20,134 nucleotides of DNA, taken from a virus. A model generated the notes under the pieces. That model was not told the origin of the DNA, searched no databases, and saw nothing but the letters and a program-made list of their open reading frames with translations. This document shows positions 7,747 to 20,057 of the stretch, in pieces. The translations under genes were made by a program, and so were the position numbers. The DNA lies in the IMG/VR virus record IMGVR_UViG_3300030202_002701, positions 1 to 20,134 of that record. One strand, given 5' to 3'. How positions within the stretch are numbered: the first letter of the stretch is position 1; every line of letters begins with the position of its first letter.

Positions 7747-8114
7747 TTGGCAAGGAGTTTGCGTATGGAACGCAGGATTGCTATAGCTTGTTGCGTGATT
7801 ATTACGCGTTGCGTGGCATTGACTTTCCTGACTTTGAAAGGCCAAAAAATTTAGAGTCTACCGATAGCATTTTTTTTCGTTATGCCAAAACGCTTGGTTT
7901 TGTGCTTGTAGATTTTGACGATCGGGAAGAAGGCGACGTATTGATTATGCGGTTAGGCACTAGGACGCCAATGCACGCAGCGGTTTATCTAACTGGCGAT
8001 CGAATTTTGCACCAGCGCATGAATAGCATCAGTGCGGTGGAACCATTTGGGCGGTACTATAGGCAGAGCGTTGCCGCCGTCTATCGCTATGCAACTGGTG
8101 ATGTTAGCCGGTGA
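7725..8114 (+). CDS. NlpC/P60 peptidase-like tail protein (gpK C-terminal half)
   Basis: 129 residues from ATG 7725 (139 if TTG 7695 is used), overlapping the JAMM gene by 22 bases. It opens with NYLPLIGKEFAYGTQDCYSL, the K-family junction where the NlpC/P60 domain starts. The nucleophile is Cys19 in D-C-Y-S-L-L-R-D-Y-Y; a G-D-V-L-I-M-R segment precedes His84 in P-M-H-A-A-V-Y, and a second His (96) follows in L-H-Q-R. Such enzymes cut peptidoglycan stem peptides, and in the tail tip this would aid local cell-wall opening. No clear ribosome site is seen, so coupling to the preceding gene is probable. I see no slippery heptamer in the overlap, so two separate proteins are more likely than a frameshifted fusion. 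Confidence 0.87.
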   Translation: MVNYLPLIGKEFAYGTQDCYSLLRDYYALRGIDFPDFERPKNLESTDSIFFRYAKTLGFVLVDFDDREEGDVLIMRLGTRTPMHAAVYLTGDRILHQRMNSISAVEPFGRYYRQSVAAVYRYATGDVSR

Positions 8115-9381
8115 GCTGGGCGATAAATACGGCACACAACACGAGTATTACAACCTAAGGACACCAGCAGATGCGATCAAACTGCTGTGCGTCAACTATC
8201 CGCAGCTGCAGAAAGATCTGGTAACAGCGCACGAAAATGGGATTGGCTACAAGCTAATTCAGTCTGGTGCGGCGATGGGATATGACGAATTGCATTTGCC
8301 GTTTGGCAGCAAGCCGATGATGCTTGTGCCGGTGATTAGCGGTAGTGGCGGATCAACGCGTCAAATTTTGTTTGGCGTTGGCTTGGTTGCGGCTTCGTTT
8401 TTGTTACCTGGCGCTGGTTTGTTTGGAACGGTAGGGCTTTTTGGAGCTGGGGCGGCTGGTGTAGCTGGTATTTCCACTACTGCTGTTTTGACTGCAACAA
8501 CAATTGGCACAGCATTAAGTGCTGTTGGCGCAAGCATGATTCTTAGCGGGGTGGCGAATTTAATTTCGCCGCAACCAGAAATGCCAAAACTTGGCAACAA
8601 CCGGTTTGATAACGGCACAAACGTTAGAGGCACTGGGGCGCAAGGCGTAACTCGTGGTGCAGACGGTCAGCAGTCTTATGGGTTTTCAGGCCCTGCAAAC
8701 ACCGTTGGGACGGGCGCGACTGTCCCTGTAATTTATGGGGAAGTAATTACTGGCGGTCATCTTATGGCTGTCGACCTTCAGGTAACTGACGATTCAGATC
8801 GTTTAGCAAAAACGATTGTTGCACCAGATGTAAGCAGAACAACAATTAATGGTGAGCGTCTTAAGAGGGCGTTTAATTCTGCGGCTGGGTTGGACACAAA
8901 AAGGTTAAGACCTGAATACAAAATCAGAACAACTGACAATGACAAAAAAGTCAAGATTGACCAAGGGTTTGGTCCAGGTTTAGAAAAAACGCTTGAGGAA
9001 GGACGTTCTATTTCAAATGACAATTTAAAATACAAAAAAGGCAACAATAAGCGTAAAAAAATTGACGTAATTTTTAAAATAGAAGGCGGTTTGTTTGACA
9101 GGATTTCAGGGGCAGGCTCTACCGAAATACCTGGGTTCATAAGTTATGAAGTCAAGCTTGTGCTTGAGCGACCTGGAGAGCCAAATTTTACGGGGGCAAG
9201 TGCAGGCGTTACAGTTCAAGGACTTTTTCACTCCAACGAAACTTTGGTTTACGGTCATCGATTTGAAGTGCCAAGAGCAGGCAAGACCGATGACCTTCGC
9301 CTAAGGGTTGAGATTGTCGATGCAGAGACAGTAAACAGAACAAAGTTGACTATTATTGGCTACGGCTACGACTTGATCTAG
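8089..9381 (+). CDS. Tail assembly protein, lambda gpI-like, with long C-terminal extension
   Basis: 430 residues from ATG 8089, almost twice lambda I (223). The start is chosen because MQLVMLAGELGDKYG is the usual beginning of the family; ATG 8101 is an alternative, and the ATG at 8032 adds unrelated residues. Residues 1-90 fit the I domain (A-D-A-I-K-L-L, Y-D-E-L-H-L-P-F, MLVPVISGSGG). About 93-165 is Gly/Ala/Val-rich and hydrophobic. Residues about 199-225 carry FSGPANTVGTGATVPVIYGE and G-G-H-L-M, common in I-type C-termini. Residues about 226-430 are extra: a basic linker (KKGNNKRKK), then beta-rich sequence ending in LRLRVEIVDAETVNRTKLTI. That part looks like a tail-tip beta domain. The gene overlaps the NlpC/P60 gene by 26 bases. 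Confidence 0.85.
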   Translation: MQLVMLAGELGDKYGTQHEYYNLRTPADAIKLLCVNYPQLQKDLVTAHENGIGYKLIQSGAAMGYDELHLPFGSKPMMLVPVISGSGGSTRQILFGVGLVAASFLLPGAGLFGTVGLFGAGAAGVAGISTTAVLTATTIGTALSAVGASMILSGVANLISPQPEMPKLGNNRFDNGTNVRGTGAQGVTRGADGQQSYGFSGPANTVGTGATVPVIYGEVITGGHLMAVDLQVTDDSDRLAKTIVAPDVSRTTINGERLKRAFNSAAGLDTKRLRPEYKIRTTDNDKKVKIDQGFGPGLEKTLEEGRSISNDNLKYKKGNNKRKKIDVIFKIEGGLFDRISGAGSTEIPGFISYEVKLVLERPGEPNFTGASAGVTVQGLFHSNETLVYGHRFEVPRAGKTDDLRLRVEIVDAETVNRTKLTIIGYGYDLI

Positions 9382-9383
9382 GA

Positions 9384-12300
9384 ATGGCTCTCAACTCTAA
9401 AACTAATCTTCATGTCGTCGACATCATAGGCGAAGGCCCAATTGAAGGATTAACAAAAAGCCGAAGCAGCATCTTTTTAGACGAAACGGAGGTGCCGGGA
9501 AAGGGAGCTGGAACGTACGATTTTGAATTTAAAAACGGAATGCCTAAGCAGCCTCCGTTTAGCGATCAAACTGCATTTAAGGATAATGTTACGACATTAA
9601 TCAATGTTGGCGTTCAGGTTGGAGCAAATTACAGCGAAACAGTTGACGCAGAAAACAAAGTAACAGACCGAGATTATGGCCAAGGTGTAGTTGTTCGCAC
9701 AATTACAGATTCGTTTGTAGACGATATTCAATTAATTTTTACTGTTCCTAAGCTTTACTGCCAGGGGATGGAGGGTCTTGCAAAGGGGCAGCTGTTTTTT
9801 GCACAAATAAAATTTGAAGTTGCAGTTCAAGGGAGTAAAGGAGGTTATCAACCAATTGATCTATTGACCACCGATGGGATCACTGACGGCAATATAATCA
9901 AAGGAATATCTACTTCTAACTATCAGATAAAAACACAACCAATAAAGCTAGACGAGCGAAAGTTTGGCAACGGTCCTTACAACATTAGAGTAAGAAAAAA
10001 GCGGTTTAAAAACCGGGAAGATGCTTTTGAAGTGCAAATTAATGACTTTGAAGACATTTCTAAAAAAACACCGCTTGCAAATACTCGCGCAGACACGCTT
10101 GTTTGGTCTTCTATTATTGCAAGAACAAACGTTAAAGTTAACTACGCAAATACAGCTTGTATCGCTTCAAGTATTGACTCAGAGCTTTTTAACACATTGC
10201 CTAAGCGAGCGTATCAAGTGCGTGGGTTAAAAGTCAAAATTCCTAGCAATGCCACGCCTCGGGCTGACGGAAGCTTGGAATACAACAATACTATTCCTTT
10301 TGATGGGCAATTAAAGGATGGATTGCATTGGACAACATGCCCCATTTGTTGTTTTTACGACATGCTTACCAACGCTCGTTATGGAGCGGGTGATTTTATT
10401 GACGCTGCAAATGTAAGTTGGATTGATTTAATTGAACTGTCTAAATACGCTAATGAGCTTATCAATAAAGACTTTTCAAATCCTGCGGCAGGCACAGAGC
10501 CTAGGTTTGCAATCAACACTGTGATTGGTTCACGGGCTGATGCTTACAACGTCTTGCAAGATCTAGCCAGCGTATTTCGCGGGATGATCTACTGGAAGTC
10601 TGACACCGTACAGGTCGCAGCAGATCACGGCAACTTAGATGGTAGTGTTCTTGACCCTGTTCATGTTTTTAATAATTCAAGTGTTGTTGGTGGAGGCTTT
10701 GAATACAGCGGATCATCTCTTAAAACACGCAGCACGCGGGTCACTGTTAGGTATAACGATCCAGACAATTTTTACAAGCCAGACCATGTAATTATTGAAA
10801 ACAGGGCCTTAATCGATAAGTACGGCTTCCAAGAGCGTGATGTTGTGGCGTTTGGCTGCACATCTAAATACCAGGCCCAGAGGATGGGTCGATGGATTCT
10901 TACGTCAGAAGAGGTTGACGGCAATATCGTGTCGTTTTCCGTTGGCCTAGAAGGTCTTGCGGTATTGCCTGGGCAGATCTTTGCCGTGTCGGACGCAATG
11001 CGTCAAGGCGCTCGATTGGCTGGGCGTGTTGCTGGAGCGGAGTTTGATTTTGTCATAGGCGACCAAACGATCACGTTGCCTTCTGGCAGCAACAACGTTT
11101 TGACAGTTGTCTTGCCTGATGGAACGGTTGAAGCAAAACCAATCAGTAGTGTTGTTGGCACTCGGATTAACGTTTCTAGCTCTTTTTCCCAGATTCCAGC
11201 TGATGATGCGGTCTACACGATTTCAAACAACAGCGTTGAAAACCAAAAGTTTCGTTGCCTTTCTGTAGGAGAAGGCGAGGGCGGCGTTTATGTAATTACT
11301 GGAGTTCAGCATGTAGATAACGTTTACAGCGTTGTTGAAGGAAAAGATTCACAGCTTGATTTTGCCGACATTTCAATTTTTGATGAAAAGCCAAACGCGC
11401 CAACAGATCTGCAGGTTACTTTTGCAGAGATTAGTCAAAACGACAATACAGTTAACAGAACCACGTTCTCTTGGAGCAGAGGGCTAGAGGCCACTGCGGT
11501 TAAATTTAAAGTTCGCTACAGGGTAGGTAGTGGAAACGATATTGAAGCAGAGACAACAAACACGTATATCAATATCGATGGCTTGCCTGTTGGTGCAACT
11601 TTCTTTGGCCAAGTTAAATCAGTTGGTCCGGCACCAAACAACAAAGAATCGGTGTTTGCAACGCTAACTGTTGCGATTGGTTCGCCTGACATTAGTACAG
11701 GTGTCGATGGCTTGACGAGCCAGACACTGCCGCCTGATCCAGAAAATGTCACTATTGAAGCGGTAGGCAAAGACCAAGCCGTTCTTCGCTGGAACGTTCC
11801 TTCTATTGGTGGAAATATTTTAAATTTGACGGCGGTTGTTCGTCATTCAGACAAAACAAGCACAACTAACCCTGCTTCTTGGGCTGATGGTTCCTTGTTG
11901 CGTACCGTTGAGGCCAGGGCTGGTTACGTCAGCTTGCCTTTAATCGAGGGCACGTACCTCGTTAAATTTGAGACCAAGACCGGCATAAGAAGTCAAAACG
12001 CAATTATTGCAATCATTAACCTGCCTGATGGAATACCAAGGTTTAATTTAGAAGTTATCAATGAACATCAAGATCCGTTTGAGTTCCAAGGCCAAAAAGA
12101 TGGTGTTTATTACAACGACGATTTGGATGGGCTAGTTCTTGACGGGGATGCGTTTATTGATGACATTAGCGGCACTTTTGACAACTTAACGTCAGTTGAT
12201 TTTATTGGAACGCAAAATACGTCAGGGGTATATCATTTCGCAAAAACCTTGGATTTAGGCGCAAAATACAGCATTCTTTTAAAGAGAAGATTATTGATGC

Positions 12301-12917
12301 GTGGTATTTACACAAGTGATTTGATTGATAGTAGGACTGAGCTTATTAACAATTGGACTGATTTTGACGGCCTGGTCCCGGATGATACAAACGTCAGTGT
12401 TTATTTCCGTAAGACAGACAACGCATCTGTTGATGAGTATCAAGTTACAGAAGATGGGTTTTCTCTTCAGCTTGAAGATGCTAGCAAAATTAAACTTAAC
12501 TCTAACTTAGAATTTGAAGATTGGATTCCTCTTGAAAACGGAAACTACGTTGGCAGGCAGTTCCAGTTCAAGGCGGAACTAGAAACGTTCCACCCTGATC
12601 AGACGCCGTTGATTGATCAACTAGGTTGTTTAATACAACTGGAGCGTAGAGTTGAAAGCAGCCAACTTATCTACTCTGGGGAAGGAACGAAAGACGTAGC
12701 TTTTGAGTATCCGTTCTATGTCGATGCTGACACCAAGGTTACTGTCAGCATTGTCGCTTATGACATGCAGACTGATGATTACTTTGAAATGTCTGAAGCG
12801 ACTGCTACTGGTTTTAGCGTTACGTTCAAAACTTCATTCGATGGCGATCAAGTCGTTAGCCGCAGGTTTAGATATACTGCGACTGGATATGGCACACTAC
12901 AGCCAACGACCCCTTAG
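9384..12917 (+). CDS. Central tail fibre / host specificity protein, lambda gpJ-like
   Basis: 1177 residues, near lambda J (1132). J forms the trimeric tip that contacts the host. The N-terminus has the classic LHVVDIIGEGPIEGL and SSIFLDETEVPG. The middle contains the tail-hub region (W-T-T-C-P-I-C-C-F-Y-D-M-L-T, NARYGAGDFID, L-A-S-V-F-R-G-M-I-Y-W), followed by STRVTVRYNDPDNFY and an R-M-G-R-W-I-L-T helix. Two fibronectin type III-like domains follow (about 669-770, starting NAPTDLQVTF, and about 785-875, starting DPENVTIEAV). The last 300 residues are beta-rich and probably bear the receptor-binding part. The gene starts two bases after the I stop. No frameshift or break is visible. Confidence 0.95.
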   Translation: MALNSKTNLHVVDIIGEGPIEGLTKSRSSIFLDETEVPGKGAGTYDFEFKNGMPKQPPFSDQTAFKDNVTTLINVGVQVGANYSETVDAENKVTDRDYGQGVVVRTITDSFVDDIQLIFTVPKLYCQGMEGLAKGQLFFAQIKFEVAVQGSKGGYQPIDLLTTDGITDGNIIKGISTSNYQIKTQPIKLDERKFGNGPYNIRVRKKRFKNREDAFEVQINDFEDISKKTPLANTRADTLVWSSIIARTNVKVNYANTACIASSIDSELFNTLPKRAYQVRGLKVKIPSNATPRADGSLEYNNTIPFDGQLKDGLHWTTCPICCFYDMLTNARYGAGDFIDAANVSWIDLIELSKYANELINKDFSNPAAGTEPRFAINTVIGSRADAYNVLQDLASVFRGMIYWKSDTVQVAADHGNLDGSVLDPVHVFNNSSVVGGGFEYSGSSLKTRSTRVTVRYNDPDNFYKPDHVIIENRALIDKYGFQERDVVAFGCTSKYQAQRMGRWILTSEEVDGNIVSFSVGLEGLAVLPGQIFAVSDAMRQGARLAGRVAGAEFDFVIGDQTITLPSGSNNVLTVVLPDGTVEAKPISSVVGTRINVSSSFSQIPADDAVYTISNNSVENQKFRCLSVGEGEGGVYVITGVQHVDNVYSVVEGKDSQLDFADISIFDEKPNAPTDLQVTFAEISQNDNTVNRTTFSWSRGLEATAVKFKVRYRVGSGNDIEAETTNTYINIDGLPVGATFFGQVKSVGPAPNNKESVFATLTVAIGSPDISTGVDGLTSQTLPPDPENVTIEAVGKDQAVLRWNVPSIGGNILNLTAVVRHSDKTSTTNPASWADGSLLRTVEARAGYVSLPLIEGTYLVKFETKTGIRSQNAIIAIINLPDGIPRFNLEVINEHQDPFEFQGQKDGVYYNDDLDGLVLDGDAFIDDISGTFDNLTSVDFIGTQNTSGVYHFAKTLDLGAKYSILLKRRLLMRGIYTSDLIDSRTELINNWTDFDGLVPDDTNVSVYFRKTDNASVDEYQVTEDGFSLQLEDASKIKLNSNLEFEDWIPLENGNYVGRQFQFKAELETFHPDQTPLIDQLGCLIQLERRVESSQLIYSGEGTKDVAFEYPFYVDADTKVTVSIVAYDMQTDDYFEMSEATATGFSVTFKTSFDGDQVVSRRFRYTATGYGTLQPTTP

Positions 12918-12928
12918 CTGAATTAATC

Positions 12929-13891
12929 ATGGCTCAAGCTGACGGCAATGTTGCGAATGGGAGTGGATCCGCCGTTCGTAGCGACATCAATACACAGCTT
13001 GCAGCGGTATTTACGAACCACAGCGGGGGCACCGCTCCCTCCACCACGTTTGCGTATCAGTTTTGGGTTGACACTACTGCAGGCGAGCTGAAGATTCGCA
13101 ATGGCGCAAACAGTGCTTGGATTTCACTGCGTTCCATAACTAGCGGTGGAATTGTTTTTCCTGCAGGTGGCGAGGCTGCTCCATCCGTAACGTTTGGCAC
13201 TGACGGTCCTGATTACGGTTTTTACCGTTCATCTCTTGGCGCTGTTGCTTATGTAACTCAATTCAGCGGCGCTGACCATACGCTTTTTTCAATCGGTAAA
13301 GACAACGGCACTGACGCTGACGGCGTTGCAGACGGACCGTCTTTGTACTGGGGGATGCAAACCAACCCCACGGCTTCAAATAACACGACAAACGAAGGAT
13401 TAATTATTTCAAAACGCGGCCGCATTCGCGTTACATGTAACAACAGCTTTTCCGGCGTATTTAACAGAGTTGGCTCAGGCGGAACGCAGCTTGGCTCTGT
13501 TGTTGAGTTTCGTTCAAACGGCACACAAGCTGGACGAATTGGAATTATCAGCGCAACAGACGTTTCTTTAATTGACGCTTCAGACCGTCGGCTGAAAGAC
13601 AACATTACTGACATGCCGGAGGCCAAGTCTCGAATCAATCAGATTCAGATGCACCGTTTCCGCATGATCAGCACTGAAACCTACGAGGAAGGTTTTATTG
13701 CTCAGGAGCTTCAAGCCGTAGTTCCTTCTGCAGTGATGGGAATGGAAGACAGCGTTGATGAAAATGGCAATGTTGAATACATGGGTGTTGGCAAGGATAT
13801 GTTGGTGCCATTGTTGATGAAAGGACTGCAAGAGGCTTTCGCTGAGATTGCTGCTTTGACGGCCCGTGTTGAAACCCTGGAGGCTGGCTGA
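12929..13891 (+). CDS. Tail fibre protein with S74 intramolecular chaperone
   Basis: 320 residues. The N-terminus (NVANGSGSAVRSDINTQLAA, then YQFWVDTTAGELKIRNGANSAW) is a common attachment module in marine phage fibres. Next comes a shaft-entry motif, APSVTFGTDGPDYGFYRSS. The C-terminus is a peptidase S74-type chaperone: S218-D219-R-R-L-K223-D-N-I, then EEGFIAQELQAVVPSAV, LVPLLMKGLQEAF and a closing coiled coil (AALTARVETLEAG). In endosialidase chaperones the equivalent Ser and Lys, spaced by five, perform self-cleavage just before the Ser after the trimer folds; both are present. Cleavage would leave about 217 residues. The stop overlaps the next start (TGATG), implying coupled expression. 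Confidence 0.88.
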   Translation: MAQADGNVANGSGSAVRSDINTQLAAVFTNHSGGTAPSTTFAYQFWVDTTAGELKIRNGANSAWISLRSITSGGIVFPAGGEAAPSVTFGTDGPDYGFYRSSLGAVAYVTQFSGADHTLFSIGKDNGTDADGVADGPSLYWGMQTNPTASNNTTNEGLIISKRGRIRVTCNNSFSGVFNRVGSGGTQLGSVVEFRSNGTQAGRIGIISATDVSLIDASDRRLKDNITDMPEAKSRINQIQMHRFRMISTETYEEGFIAQELQAVVPSAVMGMEDSVDENGNVEYMGVGKDMLVPLLMKGLQEAFAEIAALTARVETLEAG

Positions 13892-14988
13892 TGTCTGACC
13901 GCAAAATCTCTGCGCTAACAGAACTCACCGCACCTGTTACTGCAGACGTATTCCCAATCGTTGTTACTGCTGAGGCTAACAACGCGCTAAAAAACAAAAA
14001 GGTTGCGTTTGGCACGCTTCATAAGGCATTGCCTGATGGAACGGAAGCTGGCCCTGCTGTTGCATTTTTGTCAGATAGCGGCGCAACAGGGTTATATCGC
14101 TCTGGTGCGAATGAATTGGCGTTTAGTGCCAACTCGACCAACATCGGCAAGATTACGGCGACTGGCTTTCAGCTAGGCACTGGAACGGCTGCCGCTCAAT
14201 TGCATCTGTTTAGTACCGATACGACTGATCAAGTCATTATTGAGAACACTGATGCTGGCCTAGATACGGCACCTGATGTTGTGCTGTATCGCAACTCTGC
14301 GTCACCTGCTGCCAATGACAATCTTGGCAATCTTGAGTTTCGCGGAGAGGATGATGCAGGCAACGCTCAGGCGTATGCCCAGATCCTTGCTCAAATCCAA
14401 GACCCAACTAGCGGATCAGAGGATGGCACTCTTGATTTGATGACCGCATCGGGCGGGTCTATTGCGACACGGATCCGTCTGTTTGGCAACAAGGTTGGCA
14501 TTGGTGAAGCTGCCCCAGCTCATCCGCTCCACATCACCGAATCAGTAGAAAACACAGCGTTATTCCTTGAGTCAAAGGAAAACGTTGCTGTTAGTGCTGG
14601 TGACATTACGTTGTATCACCACCGCAATGGTGCTGTTGGTCAAGCAGCTGATGCACTAAGTGCGTTGATTTTCCAGGGCAATAACGGTGCTGGAACGCCT
14701 GAGCAAATTCAGTTTGCCAAGATTGAGGCGTCAATTGTCGACCCAGTTGATACGACAGAAGACGGCAAGATCGACCTACAGGTCCAGGCTGCTGGGACGT
14801 TAACGAGCATGGCGGCAATCACTGCCGCAAATGTGACGTTAGGGTCACGGCCTATTTTGCCAACTCATACTCCTGCATCAGCTACGGCTGCTGGAACGTT
14901 GGGTGAGGTGGCATGGGATGCAAACTACATCTACGTTTGCACTGCCACGAACACTTGGAAACGAGTGGCAATTGGCACTTGGTCTTAA
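13891..14988 (+). CDS. Tail fibre / tip structural protein with internal duplication
   Basis: 365 residues. TGGAGG at 13878-13883 lies 7 bases before the ATG. The N-terminus, SDRKISALTELTAPVTADVFPIV, is a fibre-attachment module also seen in the next protein (VKISDLTAYVDPASSDILPIV). A shaft-entry motif follows (AGPAVAFLSDSGATGLYRSGANELAFS). Two related segments of roughly 100 residues come next (about 109-208 and 217-318), each with a D-x-x-L-Y-x-x-x-N/S core, an acidic loop, Q-I/Q-F-A strands and E-D-G-x-x-D-L. The C-terminus, GEVAWDANYIYVCTATNTWKR, is typical of phage structural proteins ending in a small beta cap. It lacks an S74 domain. Its exact place in the particle is unknown. Confidence 0.8.
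   Translation: MSDRKISALTELTAPVTADVFPIVVTAEANNALKNKKVAFGTLHKALPDGTEAGPAVAFLSDSGATGLYRSGANELAFSANSTNIGKITATGFQLGTGTAAAQLHLFSTDTTDQVIIENTDAGLDTAPDVVLYRNSASPAANDNLGNLEFRGEDDAGNAQAYAQILAQIQDPTSGSEDGTLDLMTASGGSIATRIRLFGNKVGIGEAAPAHPLHITESVENTALFLESKENVAVSAGDITLYHHRNGAVGQAADALSALIFQGNNGAGTPEQIQFAKIEASIVDPVDTTEDGKIDLQVQAAGTLTSMAAITAANVTLGSRPILPTHTPASATAAGTLGEVAWDANYIYVCTATNTWKRVAIGTWS
14215..14845 (+). repeat. Tandem duplicated fibre domain (two ~100-residue copies)
   Basis: The segments at about 14215-14515 and 14539-14845 encode similar sequence. Matching points are VIIENTDAG/ALFLESKEN, DVVLYRNSA/DITLYHHRN, LGNLEFRGEDDAG/LSALIFQGNNGAG, AYAQILAQIQDP/QFAKIEASIVDP, and EDGTLDL/EDGKIDL, in the same order and spacing. 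DNA identity looks low, so the duplication is old. Confidence 0.7.
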
Positions 14989-15012
14989 AATTAAGCTAAA
15001 GCATCGACAGTC

Positions 15013-18000
15013 ATGGCAAACGTCAAGATTTCGGACCTGACGGCATACGTCGATCCGGCCAGTTCAGATATTTTGCCGATTGTCGATTTGGTGAACGACG
15101 TTACCAAGAAGGTGACGATTGCGGATTTATTGGAAAATGCAGGGGATGGCAGCGCTGCTGCACCTGCGTTTGCATTTAATTCTGATAGCAATACTGGTAT
15201 TTATAGAAGTGGTGCAGATGAGCTGAGCTTTGCGACGGCTGGAACGCAACGGCTTGTTATTGATAGCAGCGGGAATGTCTCTGTTGGTGGCAGCAACGTT
15301 GTAACTGTAGGAGATACTGGAACGGTCACAAGCACGATGATTCTTGACGGGACAATCGTCAATGCTGACATTAATTCCGCTGCAGCTATTGCTCTAAACA
15401 AATTGGCAAGTGGAGCACTACCTTCCACAATTACTATAGGATCATCAAATATTGTGAATGGCACTATTGTAGATGCCGATATTAGTACATCTGCTGCTAT
15501 AAGCCTGAGTAAACTTTCTTCAGGAGCACTACCGTCGAATATCACTGTTACATCGTCAAATATCTCTGATCTGTCTATCGTCAACGCTGATGTTAACGCA
15601 TCTGCAGCGATCGCTGGTACTAAAGTAAGTCCTAATTTTGGTAGTCAGAATGTATTGACGACTGGAAATTGTGGGATTGGCACTACGAGTCCAGTTAGAG
15701 CACTACAAATCGGAACACACGGTTCAGGTAATGGTGAAATGGCTCTTGCCTCTTCCACTACCGGCAATTGTAGTATTTTGATGGGTGATGGAGCAAGTGG
15801 AAGTGACTTTTATAGAGGTTATATTCAGTATCAAAATAATACGGATTCTTTGGTATTTGCTACGGCTACTACACAGAGGATGGCAATCGACAGCTCGGGC
15901 AATCTAAACGTAGGTACGACAGGAGTTAACAACAATTTCCGCCTTAATGTTAAAGCACCGTCTGGGAATGGTGGCATTGCGTTTGTACCAGCTACGGATG
16001 GAGCAACCGTTCCTGTTATTCGTATGCTTAATGCTGCGATAAGCGCTAATGTTGCAGAGATTGGTACAGTTTCCGGAAATCATTTCTATATATCTACAGG
16101 TGCAAGTGAGCGACTCAGAATCGATTCAAGTGGCAACGCCACGTTTACTGCAGACGCAACCATCAACTCACTAACGATTGGCCGTGGTGCGGGTAACGTT
16201 TCAAGTAATACGGTGGTTGGTAGTAGTGCTCTGAATGCAAACACCAATGGTACTTTCAACGCAGCTGTAGGATTAAATGCTCTCTCTTCTAATACCGGAG
16301 GTGATTACAACACGGCTATCGGTGGAGATAGCCCCCTCGGTGCAAACACCACAGGTAATTACAACACAGCTGTCGGGGCAGGTTCCCTCAAGGCGAACAC
16401 CACTGGCTCTCTCAACACAGCTAGCGGACTCAACTCTCTTCGATTAAACACTACTGGTTCTAGAAACACAGCCACCGGACGACAAGCTCTTTATTCCAAT
16501 ACCACTGCTAGTGATAATACAGCTAGCGGTCATCAAGCTCTTTATTCCAATACAACTGGTGCTAGTAACACAGCTAGCGGATCCAGTGCTCTCTATTCTA
16601 ATACCACTGGTGGTAACAACACTGCTAGCGGAGTAAACGCTCTTACATCAAACACCACTGCTGATAACAATACAGCTTACGGGATAGGTTCTCTTTATTC
16701 AAATACCACTGCTTCTAACAACACAGCCCACGGTTTTAAAGCTCTCTATTCCAATACTACAGGTACTTTCAATACATCCATTGGGATGCAATCTCTTTAT
16801 ACTAACACCACTGGTAGTTATAACTCAGCTAGTGGAATGTATGCGCTGTATTACAGCACCACTGGTACTAATAATACGGCTACCGGATTTCAAGCTCTGT
16901 ATACCAACACTACTGGCGGTGGCAATACAGCTAACGGGAAAAGTGCTCTACAGCAAAACACTACGGGTACTCTTAACACAGCTATAGGGTATCAAGCTTT
17001 AGTCCTCAACTCCACTGGCTCTAGTAATGTAGCAAGCGGGGTCAATGCTCTTTATAGCAACACTACTGGTGATAAAAACGTAGCAAGTGGGTATCAGGCA
17101 CTCTTTACAAATTCCACTGGTAGTTACAACGTAGCTGTTGGAAATGAAGCACTAACTCTAAACACTACAGCATCTGAAAATACTGCAGTTGGCAATAAAG
17201 CTTTAAAAAGTAACACGACAGGCGCTAGTAATACAGCACAAGGTGCTGGTGCGCTTCATACGAACACCACTGGTGCTTACAACACAGCAAACGGTTACCA
17301 TGCTCTCTTTTCCAACACCACTGGCGGTAATAATACAGCCGTTGGAAGACAAGCTCTCTTAAGCAACACCACTGCGAGTGGTAACACAGCTACTGGATAC
17401 AATTCGCTTGCTTTAAACACCACTGGCGGTAACAACACAGCCTTTGGATTTGAAGGTTTAATCAGCAATACCACTGGTGCTTACAACACAGCTACTGGAT
17501 ACCAAGCTCTTTATAACAACACCACTGGTCATAGCAACGTAGCTAACGGGTACCAAGCTCTTGCTTTAAACTCCACTGGTTATAGCAACACAGCTAGCGG
17601 ATATCAAGCTCTTTATAACAACACCACGGGTCAAGGCAACACTGCTGCCGGGGAAAATTCTCTTCTTTCTAATACCACTGGTGTTGAAAACACAGCCACT
17701 GGCATACAATCTCTACGTTTCAACACAACTGGTACTGAAAACGTAGCAAGCGGATATAACGCTTTGCGTGTCAATACAACTGGGAACTACAACGTTGCAT
17801 ACGGGGCAAGAGCCTTATATAGCAACACCACTGCCAGCAATAATGTAGCTGTCGGATATTTTGCACTCTATTCCAACACCACGGGTTATCACAACGTAGC
17901 CAACGGAGTCAGTGCTCTTCGTTTTAACACCACTGGTACTAATAATACAGCCTGCGGGTTTCAAGCTCTTTACTCCAACACTTCTGGCGGAGATAACTCA

Positions 18001-18855
18001 GCCTACGGGATGGATGCACTCTTACTCAACACTACTGGTAATTACAATACAGCTGCAGGATGGAGGGCTCTTCGTAGTAACAGCACTGGTAATTCAAACG
18101 TAGCTACTGGATATCAGGCCCTTTTTGGCAACACCACTGGTATTAATAACACAGCTACTGGATTAAATTCTCTCCTCAACAACACCACTGGAAACAACAA
18201 TGTAGCTAACGGATTAGACGCTCTTCGTAACAACACCACTGGTGCTAGTAATGTAGCCCTCGGATACCAAGCCCTCTATTCAAACACTACTAGCAATACA
18301 AACACAGCTATTGGAAGAGATACTCTCTATAACAACACCACTGGTACAGCTAATGTAGCCCTCGGATACTCAGCTATGGTCTCAAACACCACTGGATCCG
18401 GTAATATTGGCATTGGTTTTATAAGCAGCAATGGGTCTTATGGACCAGTGTTTGCCACAACAACAGAAAACAACCGTCTAGCTTTAGGTCATACATCAAT
18501 CACTAATGCCTACGTCAAAGTATCTTGGACCGTTACATCAGATGAACGCGATAAGATGAACTTTGCTCCAGTACCGTATGGTCTGGACTTTGTTAATCAA
18601 CTCAAGCCAACTGCCTATCAGTTCAAGGTAGATCGTGACACTGAAACACCAGATGGTGATGTACGTTATGGATTCAAAGCGCAAGACATCCTTGCCTTAG
18701 AAGGTGACAACCCAGTCATCATTGACACCGAAGACGCTGATCACCTCAAATACAAAGGTGAGCATCTGGTTCCTGTGCTGGTAAATGCCGTACAAGAGTT
18801 GACGGCTATGGTTAAAGAGTTGCAGAATGAGGTCGCTGCGCTGAAGAGCGCGTAG
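15013..18855 (+). CDS. Giant repeat fibre/adhesin with S74 chaperone
   Basis: 1280 residues. Order: attachment module VKISDLTAYVDPASSDILPIV (1-30); shaft-entry motif APAFAFNSDSNTGIYRSGAD (about 55-75); three 37-residue repeats (about 113-206); two further I-D-S-S-G-N shaft segments (about 290-380); a run of 42 repeats of 17 residues plus one degraded unit (about 410-1141); then the S74-type chaperone from S1176-D-E-R-D-K1181, with RYGFKAQDILAL, LVPVLVNAVQEL and a C-terminal coiled coil. Ser and Lys of the self-cleaving pair keep the five-residue spacing. The repeat consensus N-T-T-G-x-x-N-T-A-x-G-x-x-A-L-x-x recalls the beta-roll heads of YadA-type adhesins, but with a longer period. A trimeric receptor-binding side fibre is the likely role. 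No clear ribosome site was found before the start. Confidence 0.9.
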   Translation: MANVKISDLTAYVDPASSDILPIVDLVNDVTKKVTIADLLENAGDGSAAAPAFAFNSDSNTGIYRSGADELSFATAGTQRLVIDSSGNVSVGGSNVVTVGDTGTVTSTMILDGTIVNADINSAAAIALNKLASGALPSTITIGSSNIVNGTIVDADISTSAAISLSKLSSGALPSNITVTSSNISDLSIVNADVNASAAIAGTKVSPNFGSQNVLTTGNCGIGTTSPVRALQIGTHGSGNGEMALASSTTGNCSILMGDGASGSDFYRGYIQYQNNTDSLVFATATTQRMAIDSSGNLNVGTTGVNNNFRLNVKAPSGNGGIAFVPATDGATVPVIRMLNAAISANVAEIGTVSGNHFYISTGASERLRIDSSGNATFTADATINSLTIGRGAGNVSSNTVVGSSALNANTNGTFNAAVGLNALSSNTGGDYNTAIGGDSPLGANTTGNYNTAVGAGSLKANTTGSLNTASGLNSLRLNTTGSRNTATGRQALYSNTTASDNTASGHQALYSNTTGASNTASGSSALYSNTTGGNNTASGVNALTSNTTADNNTAYGIGSLYSNTTASNNTAHGFKALYSNTTGTFNTSIGMQSLYTNTTGSYNSASGMYALYYSTTGTNNTATGFQALYTNTTGGGNTANGKSALQQNTTGTLNTAIGYQALVLNSTGSSNVASGVNALYSNTTGDKNVASGYQALFTNSTGSYNVAVGNEALTLNTTASENTAVGNKALKSNTTGASNTAQGAGALHTNTTGAYNTANGYHALFSNTTGGNNTAVGRQALLSNTTASGNTATGYNSLALNTTGGNNTAFGFEGLISNTTGAYNTATGYQALYNNTTGHSNVANGYQALALNSTGYSNTASGYQALYNNTTGQGNTAAGENSLLSNTTGVENTATGIQSLRFNTTGTENVASGYNALRVNTTGNYNVAYGARALYSNTTASNNVAVGYFALYSNTTGYHNVANGVSALRFNTTGTNNTACGFQALYSNTSGGDNSAYGMDALLLNTTGNYNTAAGWRALRSNSTGNSNVATGYQALFGNTTGINNTATGLNSLLNNTTGNNNVANGLDALRNNTTGASNVALGYQALYSNTTSNTNTAIGRDTLYNNTTGTANVALGYSAMVSNTTGSGNIGIGFISSNGSYGPVFATTTENNRLALGHTSITNAYVKVSWTVTSDERDKMNFAPVPYGLDFVNQLKPTAYQFKVDRDTETPDGDVRYGFKAQDILALEGDNPVIIDTEDADHLKYKGEHLVPVLVNAVQELTAMVKELQNEVAALKSA
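15349..15639 (+). repeat. 37-residue (111-base) tandem repeats in fibre shaft
   Basis: Copies begin at 15349, 15460 and 15571 (the third is partial). Each reads as G/S-x-I-V-x-A-D-I/V-x-x-S/A-A-A-I, then a K-L-x-S-G-A-L-P-S and an S-S-N-I segment. At DNA level GGAGCACTACC recurs at about 15413 and 15524. The exact 111-base period shows unit duplication. Confidence 0.85.
16240..18435 (+). repeat. Array of 42-43 tandem 51-base coding repeats
   Basis: Units of 51 bases encode 17 residues each, with consensus N-T-T-G-x-x-N-T/V-A-x-G-x-x-A/S-L-x-x. From 16240 to 18384 there are 42 units: 2145 bases equals 42 times 51 plus one extra codon, located in the second unit. The unit at 18385-18435 is degraded. 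Skeleton positions are nearly fixed, while positions 5, 6, 10, 12, 13, 16 and 17 vary. By eye the copies are diverged rather than identical. Confidence 0.95.
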
Positions 18856-19700: not shown

Positions 19701-20057
19701 ATGATCAAAGCATTCGCAGTAGCTGTTTCTGGTGTTCTCGCTGGTTCAGCTGCCTTGGCAGGCCCTTATGTCAACGTAGAGAATAACGGCGGTTATTCGG
19801 GCGGAGATTACGCCGGATCTGTAACAGATTTCCACGTTGGTTTTGAAGGTTCTGACGGCGTTTACGGTTACTACCTGCAGGGCGGTCCAGCCTTGGTTGC
19901 TCCTGACGGTGGCGATTCTGAGTTTGAACTGTCCGGCAAAGTTGGCGGAAACGTCCAAGTAGCCCAAAACGTTGGCATCTATGGCGAGCTGAGCTTCATC
20001 ACTGCAGAAGATGATCCTTCTGTTGGAACCAAGCTTGGCGTGAAGTGGGCTTTCTGA
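19701..20057 (+). CDS. Secreted small outer-membrane-like protein, phage moron candidate
   Basis: 118 residues. The first 20 form a clear Sec signal peptide: Lys at 3, a hydrophobic Ala/Val/Leu core, and A-L-A before G21 as a signal peptidase I site. The mature part (98 residues) is Gly/Asp-rich with alternating strands (FHVGFEGSDGVYGYYLQGG, ELSGKVGGNVQVAQNVGIYG, TKLGVKWAF) and ends in Phe, a common outer-membrane barrel signal. It would be exported by the host. It is too short for an eight-stranded OmpX/Lom barrel, so an oligomer or a periplasmic beta protein is possible. Lambda encodes the outer-membrane protein Lom just after J, so position suggests an analogue altering the host surface. 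It has its own preceding gap and a terminator directly downstream. Confidence 0.8.
   Translation: MIKAFAVAVSGVLAGSAALAGPYVNVENNGGYSGGDYAGSVTDFHVGFEGSDGVYGYYLQGGPALVAPDGGDSEFELSGKVGGNVQVAQNVGIYGELSFITAEDDPSVGTKLGVKWAF

What the first reader, a model, noticed from the sequence alone, without database searches (positions are those of the whole stretch)
16240..18435. 42-unit, 17-residue-period solenoid in a phage fibre
The 51-base period is exact across 42 units apart from one inserted codon. The skeleton N-T-T-G-x-x-N-T-A-x-G-x-x-A-L-x-x resembles YadA-type head repeats in spirit but differs in period. In front of an S74 chaperone it probably forms a trimeric beta-solenoid arm. If each unit is one coil with about 0.48 nm rise, the arm would be near 20 nm (inference).
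Basis: partly seen in the sequence, partly recalled or inferred. Interest (0 to 1): 0.72.

Follow-up and report, generated by a model that had tools for sequence, protein, structure and literature searches.

The report
Repeat-built arm of a cyanophage tail fibre
A virus of marine cyanobacteria carries a tail-fibre gene made mostly of 43 near-identical 17-residue units that probably stack into a stiff rod about 20 nm long, a common but poorly described relative of bacterial YadA-type adhesin rods, and related viruses appear to swap the far end of this rod by recombining inside the repeats.

Summary
The array is real. The skeleton is N-T-A-x-G-x-x-A-L-x-x-N-T-T-G-x-x. An S74 self-cleaving chaperone (Pfam above cut-off, SDERDK motif) ends the protein. 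The phage is a Synechococcus-type siphovirus. The same 17-mer array is common in phage tail fibres (SPO1, P-SSM2, pelagiphages), bacterial S74 proteins and some giant viruses, but no Pfam or NCBIfam model covers it. Best explanation: a trimeric, probably left-handed, beta-roll of YadA type with 17 instead of 14 residues per layer. Evidence: invariant G with a second G seven residues before it, YadA-type 14-mers in the same proteins, and a register test (22 of 2000 permutations). Monomer AlphaFold shows two short strands per unit, but confidence was inconsistent between runs and Foldseek against PDB was not significant, so fold, handedness and trimerisation remain inferred. New here: near-identical phages switch abruptly inside the array and differ in unit number, so distal layers and chaperone look like an exchangeable module.

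The parts
15013..18855 (+). tail-fibre gene, 1280 aa (start ATG, stop 18853-18855)
   Evidence: PHROG structural/tail families, Pfam S74
15013..15261 (+). N-terminal ~83 aa, probable virion-attachment end; 67.5% identical to a 271-aa tail-fibre protein of cyanophage KBS-S-2A that lies in the same place after a tail protein and another fibre gene and lacks the array and S74
15262..16206 (+). linker modules (GIYRSG.. and GIGTTSP-type motifs) between attachment end and array
   Evidence: sequence; weak cyanophage fibre matches; no Pfam hit
16207..18402 (+). array of 43 units of 17 residues, NTAxGxxALxxNTTGxx
16309..16362 (+). unit 3 with the single extra codon (18 residues)
18403..18537 (+). irregular closing layer(s) and 45-residue link to the cleavage site; the 45-residue spacing recurs in most relatives
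18538..18855 (+). S74 intramolecular chaperone / self-cleaving domain, starts at the predicted cleavage Ser of SDERDK; ends in a predicted long helix (about 18769-18849)
   Evidence: E 1.8e-8, 35 bits, cut-off 22; SDERDK invariant in 24 sequences
17683..17841 (+). zone where a relative (L003), identical to the window over 7891-17682, becomes unrelated: 9 mismatches between 17683 and 17801, then full divergence from 17834
9384..12917 (+). J-like tail tip protein upstream
12929..13891 (+). first fibre gene after J, also ends in S74
13891..14988 (+). second fibre-like gene with a similar-looking N-terminus (KISxLTxxxxPxxxDxxPIV)
   Evidence: sequence

Best explanation
The gene encodes a side tail fibre of a Synechococcus-type siphovirus. 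Three copies would fold together under the C-terminal S74 chaperone; each 17-residue unit would form one layer of a parallel beta-roll of YadA type (a 14-residue layer plus three residues), giving a rod of about 43 layers, about 20 nm. The chaperone would then cut itself off before Ser1176, exposing the distal end for host contact. The number of units sets rod length, and recombination between arrays replaces the distal layers together with the chaperone. Shown here: array, register, S74 with catalytic motif, tail location, family spread, mosaic arrays. Inferred: left-handed roll, trimer, cleavage, receptor binding at the distal end.
For: S74 above Pfam cut-off, with the SDxxxK catalytic motif described in PMC10769870 invariant in 24 relatives. 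Three fibre genes in a row follow a J-like gene. Major capsid protein 57-60% identical to Synechococcus phages S-CBS1/S-CBS3. Register: G5 in 98% of units in viruses and bacteria, with G15 seven residues ahead of the next G5, matching G@1/G@8 of 14-residue left-handed rolls, where G@8 is completely conserved (PMC9543794). An explicit search over all registers and three-column deletions puts G15 on @1, T2 on @5, A3 on @6, G5 on @8 as best; 22 of 2000 column permutations do as well. HHalign of the true order scores above all permuted controls (14.2 vs at most 10.0 of 40; 12.1 vs 11.3 and 12.9 vs 11.8 of 100 each), although the alignment of the last run covers only one column. 14-residue YadA-type runs and 17-mers share a single ORF in L178 (virus) and L091 (bacterium); 27 of 100 untruncated bacterial arrays end in a 14-spaced cap before the next domain, as does SPO1 gp2.52. 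Monomer AlphaFold of 11 units + S74: mean pLDDT about 92 over the first 130 residues, two strands per unit.
Against: No Pfam YadA_head hit in the window or 24 relatives. HHalign probabilities are only 1-7%. Only one of five models in the first AlphaFold job was confident (the others 51-54), and a second job with a 109-row alignment fell to pLDDT 63. The S74 part of the model is poor. Trimers could not be predicted.
Confidence: 0.68

Rival explanations
1. The units form a right-handed parallel beta-helix, as in tailspike enzymes, rather than a left-handed YadA-type roll.
For: The best (non-significant) Foldseek matches of the higher-confidence model are right-handed helices: polygalacturonase, phage tailspikes.
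Against: E-values 0.085 and worse, probability at most about 0.2, TM-scores below 0.3; 17 residues with two short strands is small for such helices (own knowledge); the register match and co-occurrence with YadA 14-mers point the other way.
Confidence: 0.15
2. Three chains intertwine into a triple-stranded beta-helix, the fold usually found just ahead of S74 domains.
For: S74 domains are known to chaperone trimeric beta-helices (PMC10769870).
Against: Monomer models show two short strands in every unit; a strict 17-residue period with two conserved glycines fits one layer per unit of one chain (inference).
Confidence: 0.1
3. The array is only a spacer; host contact is made entirely by the closing layer and tip, not by the rod surface. 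(A rival on function; compatible with either fold.)
For: The unit count varies widely among relatives, roughly 9 to 55 in fibre ORFs of the first viral set, while the 45-residue link to S74 is kept.
Against: Unit positions 6, 7, 10, 11, 16, 17 vary strongly and the swapped modules include many distal units.
Confidence: 0.4
4. The abrupt switches between near-identical phages are assembly chimeras created by repeats. (A rival only to the module-swap part.)
For: Contigs come from metagenomes; repeats favour misassembly; the breakpoint sample is small and loci were chosen for this gene.
Against: The units are only 59% alike at DNA level, so few long exact words are shared; the L003 switch passes through scattered substitutions over about 150 bases; L011/L014 agree on both sides of a replaced inner patch; two other contigs carry the window's version unchanged.
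Confidence: 0.2

Closest known systems
YadA-type left-handed parallel beta-roll heads (YadA, BpaC, CbpF)
   Same: one repeat per layer, invariant G@8-like glycine, second glycine seven residues earlier, T/V-A before it, expected rise 4.8 A per layer; BpaC also has 42 layers (PMC9543794)
   Different: 17 residues instead of 14 (15 in UspA1), no YadA_head profile hit, no membrane anchor; phage fibre with S74 instead
S74-terminated phage fibres and spikes (K1F endosialidase, T5 pb1) and Bdellovibrio MAT fibres
   Same: C-terminal S74 chaperone with SDxxxK, expected trimer and self-cleavage (PMC10769870)
   Different: the shaft is a 17-residue repeat array rather than the beta-helix seen in those structures
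Tail-fibre / spike proteins with the same 17-mers: SPO1 gp2.52, P-SSM2 PSSM2_298, HTVC111P gp52, CRP-7 gp48, Venkman gp55
   Same: same skeleton and spacing in the tail region of isolated phages; followed by S74-type motifs
   Different: fewer or less regular units (about 10 to 37 by a lenient count), different N-termini
Bacterial S74 proteins of Bacteroidota, Verrucomicrobiota and others
   Same: same 17-mer profile, often capped by YadA 14-mers and S74
   Different: lie in bacterial assemblies, some with N-terminal stretches that look like signal peptides; whether prophage or cellular was not sorted

Membership tests
Peptidase_S74 (PF13884) fibre | profile hit above curated cut-off at the C-terminus | tested here: met
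   35 bits, cut-off 22, aa 1176-1227
Peptidase_S74 (PF13884) fibre | Ser-Asp-x-x-x-Lys catalytic motif | tested here: met
   SDERDK at 18538; invariant in 24 relatives; motif from PMC10769870
Peptidase_S74 (PF13884) fibre | trimerisation and self-cleavage | not testable with these tools
   needs expression
YadA_head (PF05658) | profile hit | tested here: not met
   none, even at lenient E-value
YadA-type left-handed parallel beta-roll | 14-residue layer | tested here: not met
   17 residues; 15 occurs in UspA1
YadA-type left-handed parallel beta-roll | invariant glycine per layer with T/V-A before it | tested here: met
   G5 43/43 in the window, 98% of distinct units elsewhere; register test 22/2000
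YadA-type left-handed parallel beta-roll | left-handed parallel roll fold | tested here: inconclusive
YadA-type left-handed parallel beta-roll | obligate trimer | not testable with these tools
   single-chain prediction only; PMC9543794 warns that a monomer AlphaFold model of such a rod misleads
Trimeric autotransporter adhesin | C-terminal membrane beta-barrel anchor | tested here: not met
   the C-terminus is S74; no anchor profile in the Pfam scan

The most novel reading that the evidence does not exclude
The 17-residue unit defines an unrecognised, very widespread class of beta-roll shared by phages, giant viruses and bacteria, and in phages the array is a preferred crossover zone that lets lineages exchange the distal rod plus its chaperone as one module, changing length and receptor surface together.
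Probability: 0.35. Interest if true: 0.6.

Novelty: new variant of a known kind. Interest (0 to 1): 0.42.

Why it matters
No Pfam or NCBIfam model covers this repeat although it is common in phage receptor-side proteins; naming it would annotate many tail fibres. If the roll and the distal-module swap are real, fibre length and receptor specificity could be read from the unit string, and host-range change in cyanophages would have a simple natural recombination route.

Tried and rejected
Sequence searches of PDB (only weak S74 relatives) and NCBIfam (nothing for this protein). The profile alignment as a search query failed (no conserved stretch). A placement of the three extra residues exactly at N-T-T between YadA positions 14 and 1 was my first guess; the register test puts the insertion only somewhere in the stretch from x7 to T14. 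Papers: no description of the 17-mer found; a YadA-annotated pelagiphage tail fibre in a variable region is mentioned in PMC3909814. Unit counts made with a low score threshold are unreliable in sequence of this composition (about 8 hits in a shuffled array); I rely on the 17 spacing (2931 of about 3224 neighbour spacings in viruses, 2168 of about 2487 in bacteria).

Full report
Observation. The array is real. ORF 15013-18855 encodes 1280 aa. In the register NTAxGxxALxxNTTGxx there are 43 units, 16207-18402; all step by 51 bases except unit 3, which has one extra codon. Lag-17 identity is 0.548 against 0.115 in shuffles. Units are 59% alike in DNA, with third codon positions the most variable, which speaks for an old array under protein-level selection. 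Two further IMG/VR contigs carry the identical array.

Context. The window is most of a 20,719-base IMG/VR fragment. It starts in a major capsid protein 57-60% identical to those of Synechococcus siphophages S-CBS1 and S-CBS3, runs through a tape measure and a J-like tail protein whose nearest isolate relative is in Prochlorococcus phage MED4-117, then three fibre-like genes (12929, 13891, 15013), and ends with DUF7936 and a cyanophage outer-membrane-like protein, whose relatives lie almost only in cyanophages. The first 83 residues of the array protein are 67.5% identical to a 271-aa tail-fibre protein of cyanophage KBS-S-2A in the corresponding gene position; that protein has neither array nor S74. 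The array and S74 therefore look like a module fitted to a shared attachment end (inference).

S74. The C-terminus matches Peptidase_S74 above cut-off from aa 1176; SDERDK fits the SDxxxK motif (PMC10769870) and is invariant in 24 relatives, mostly 45 residues after the last unit.

Spread. tblastn finds 104 isolate phage records (some match through S74 alone), including SPO1 gp2.52 and fibres of P-SSM2, HTVC111P and CRP-7 with 17-spaced units. About 90% of neighbour spacings are 17 in both groups, and the unit profiles are nearly the same. The structure library of viral proteins gives matches down to E 3e-19, including Bodo saltans virus and a marseillevirus.

Fold. AlphaFold on 11 units plus S74 gave mean pLDDT about 92 over the first 130 residues and two short strands per unit, but only one of five models was confident. 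A second job on 14 units with 109 rows reached only 63, with the same strand pattern where resolved. The case for a YadA-type roll rests on sequence: invariant glycine with a second glycine seven residues before it, the best register in an exhaustive test (22 of 2000 permutations), HHalign above all permuted controls though with low probability and, in the longest comparison, a one-column alignment, and 14-mers and 17-mers in one protein (L178, L091; caps; SPO1). Against it, YadA_head never hits. The rise of 4.8 A per layer is from BpaC (PMC9543794); 43 layers would be 20.6 nm.

Mosaic arrays. L003 is identical to the window over 7891-17682, gathers 9 differences from 17683 to 17801, then diverges completely; it has five fewer units and an 87.6% identical C-terminal end. 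L007/L009 share the last 15 units and L017/L021 the last five, with unrelated units before; L011/L014 share both sides of a replaced inner patch with one unit of difference. Breakpoints lie in arrays 11 times per 18 kb aligned, outside 20 times per 113 kb. These counts are not independent and the loci were chosen for this gene, so this is a lead, not a test. Assembly chimeras are not excluded.

Verdict. A real, ordinary-to-interesting fibre: a new variant of the YadA-roll kind by inference, widespread and absent from Pfam, with a plausible and testable module-swapping role.

Noticed in passing
19701-20057 (+): Cyanophage outer-membrane-like protein (PF24653, E 1.6e-39); 445 phage records match, nearly all cyanophages; best about 52% identical (Synechococcus phage Bellamy), so no close match in isolates.
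   Followed up: partly
12929-13891 (+): The first fibre gene after J also ends in an S74 domain, so this phage has two S74 fibre genes near each other.
   Followed up: no
L178, ORF from 368 (1477 aa): Viral ORF holding a run of eight YadA-type 14-mers (TTASGxYSHAEG) and, further on, an array of 17-mers.
   Followed up: partly
L216, ORF from 1: Bacterial ORF with collagen-like GPKGDKG repeats, then YadA 14-mers, then an S74-like end.
   Followed up: no
L222, ORF from 52: Bacterial ORF with a 16/17-residue variant in which Phe replaces Ala (NxFxG), closed by a YadA-type cap.
   Followed up: no
L224 / L129 (Limnobacter parvus): A 4325-aa open frame that gives weak YadA_head matches (E 0.0015) lies in the region fetched for its 17-mers.
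   Followed up: no
one search list: The viral structure library shows this repeat in giant viruses (Bodo saltans virus 44% identical; also a marseillevirus and, more weakly, medusavirus).
   Followed up: no
L012, L029: Two adjacent open frames each with a long 17-mer array in the same virus contig.
   Followed up: no
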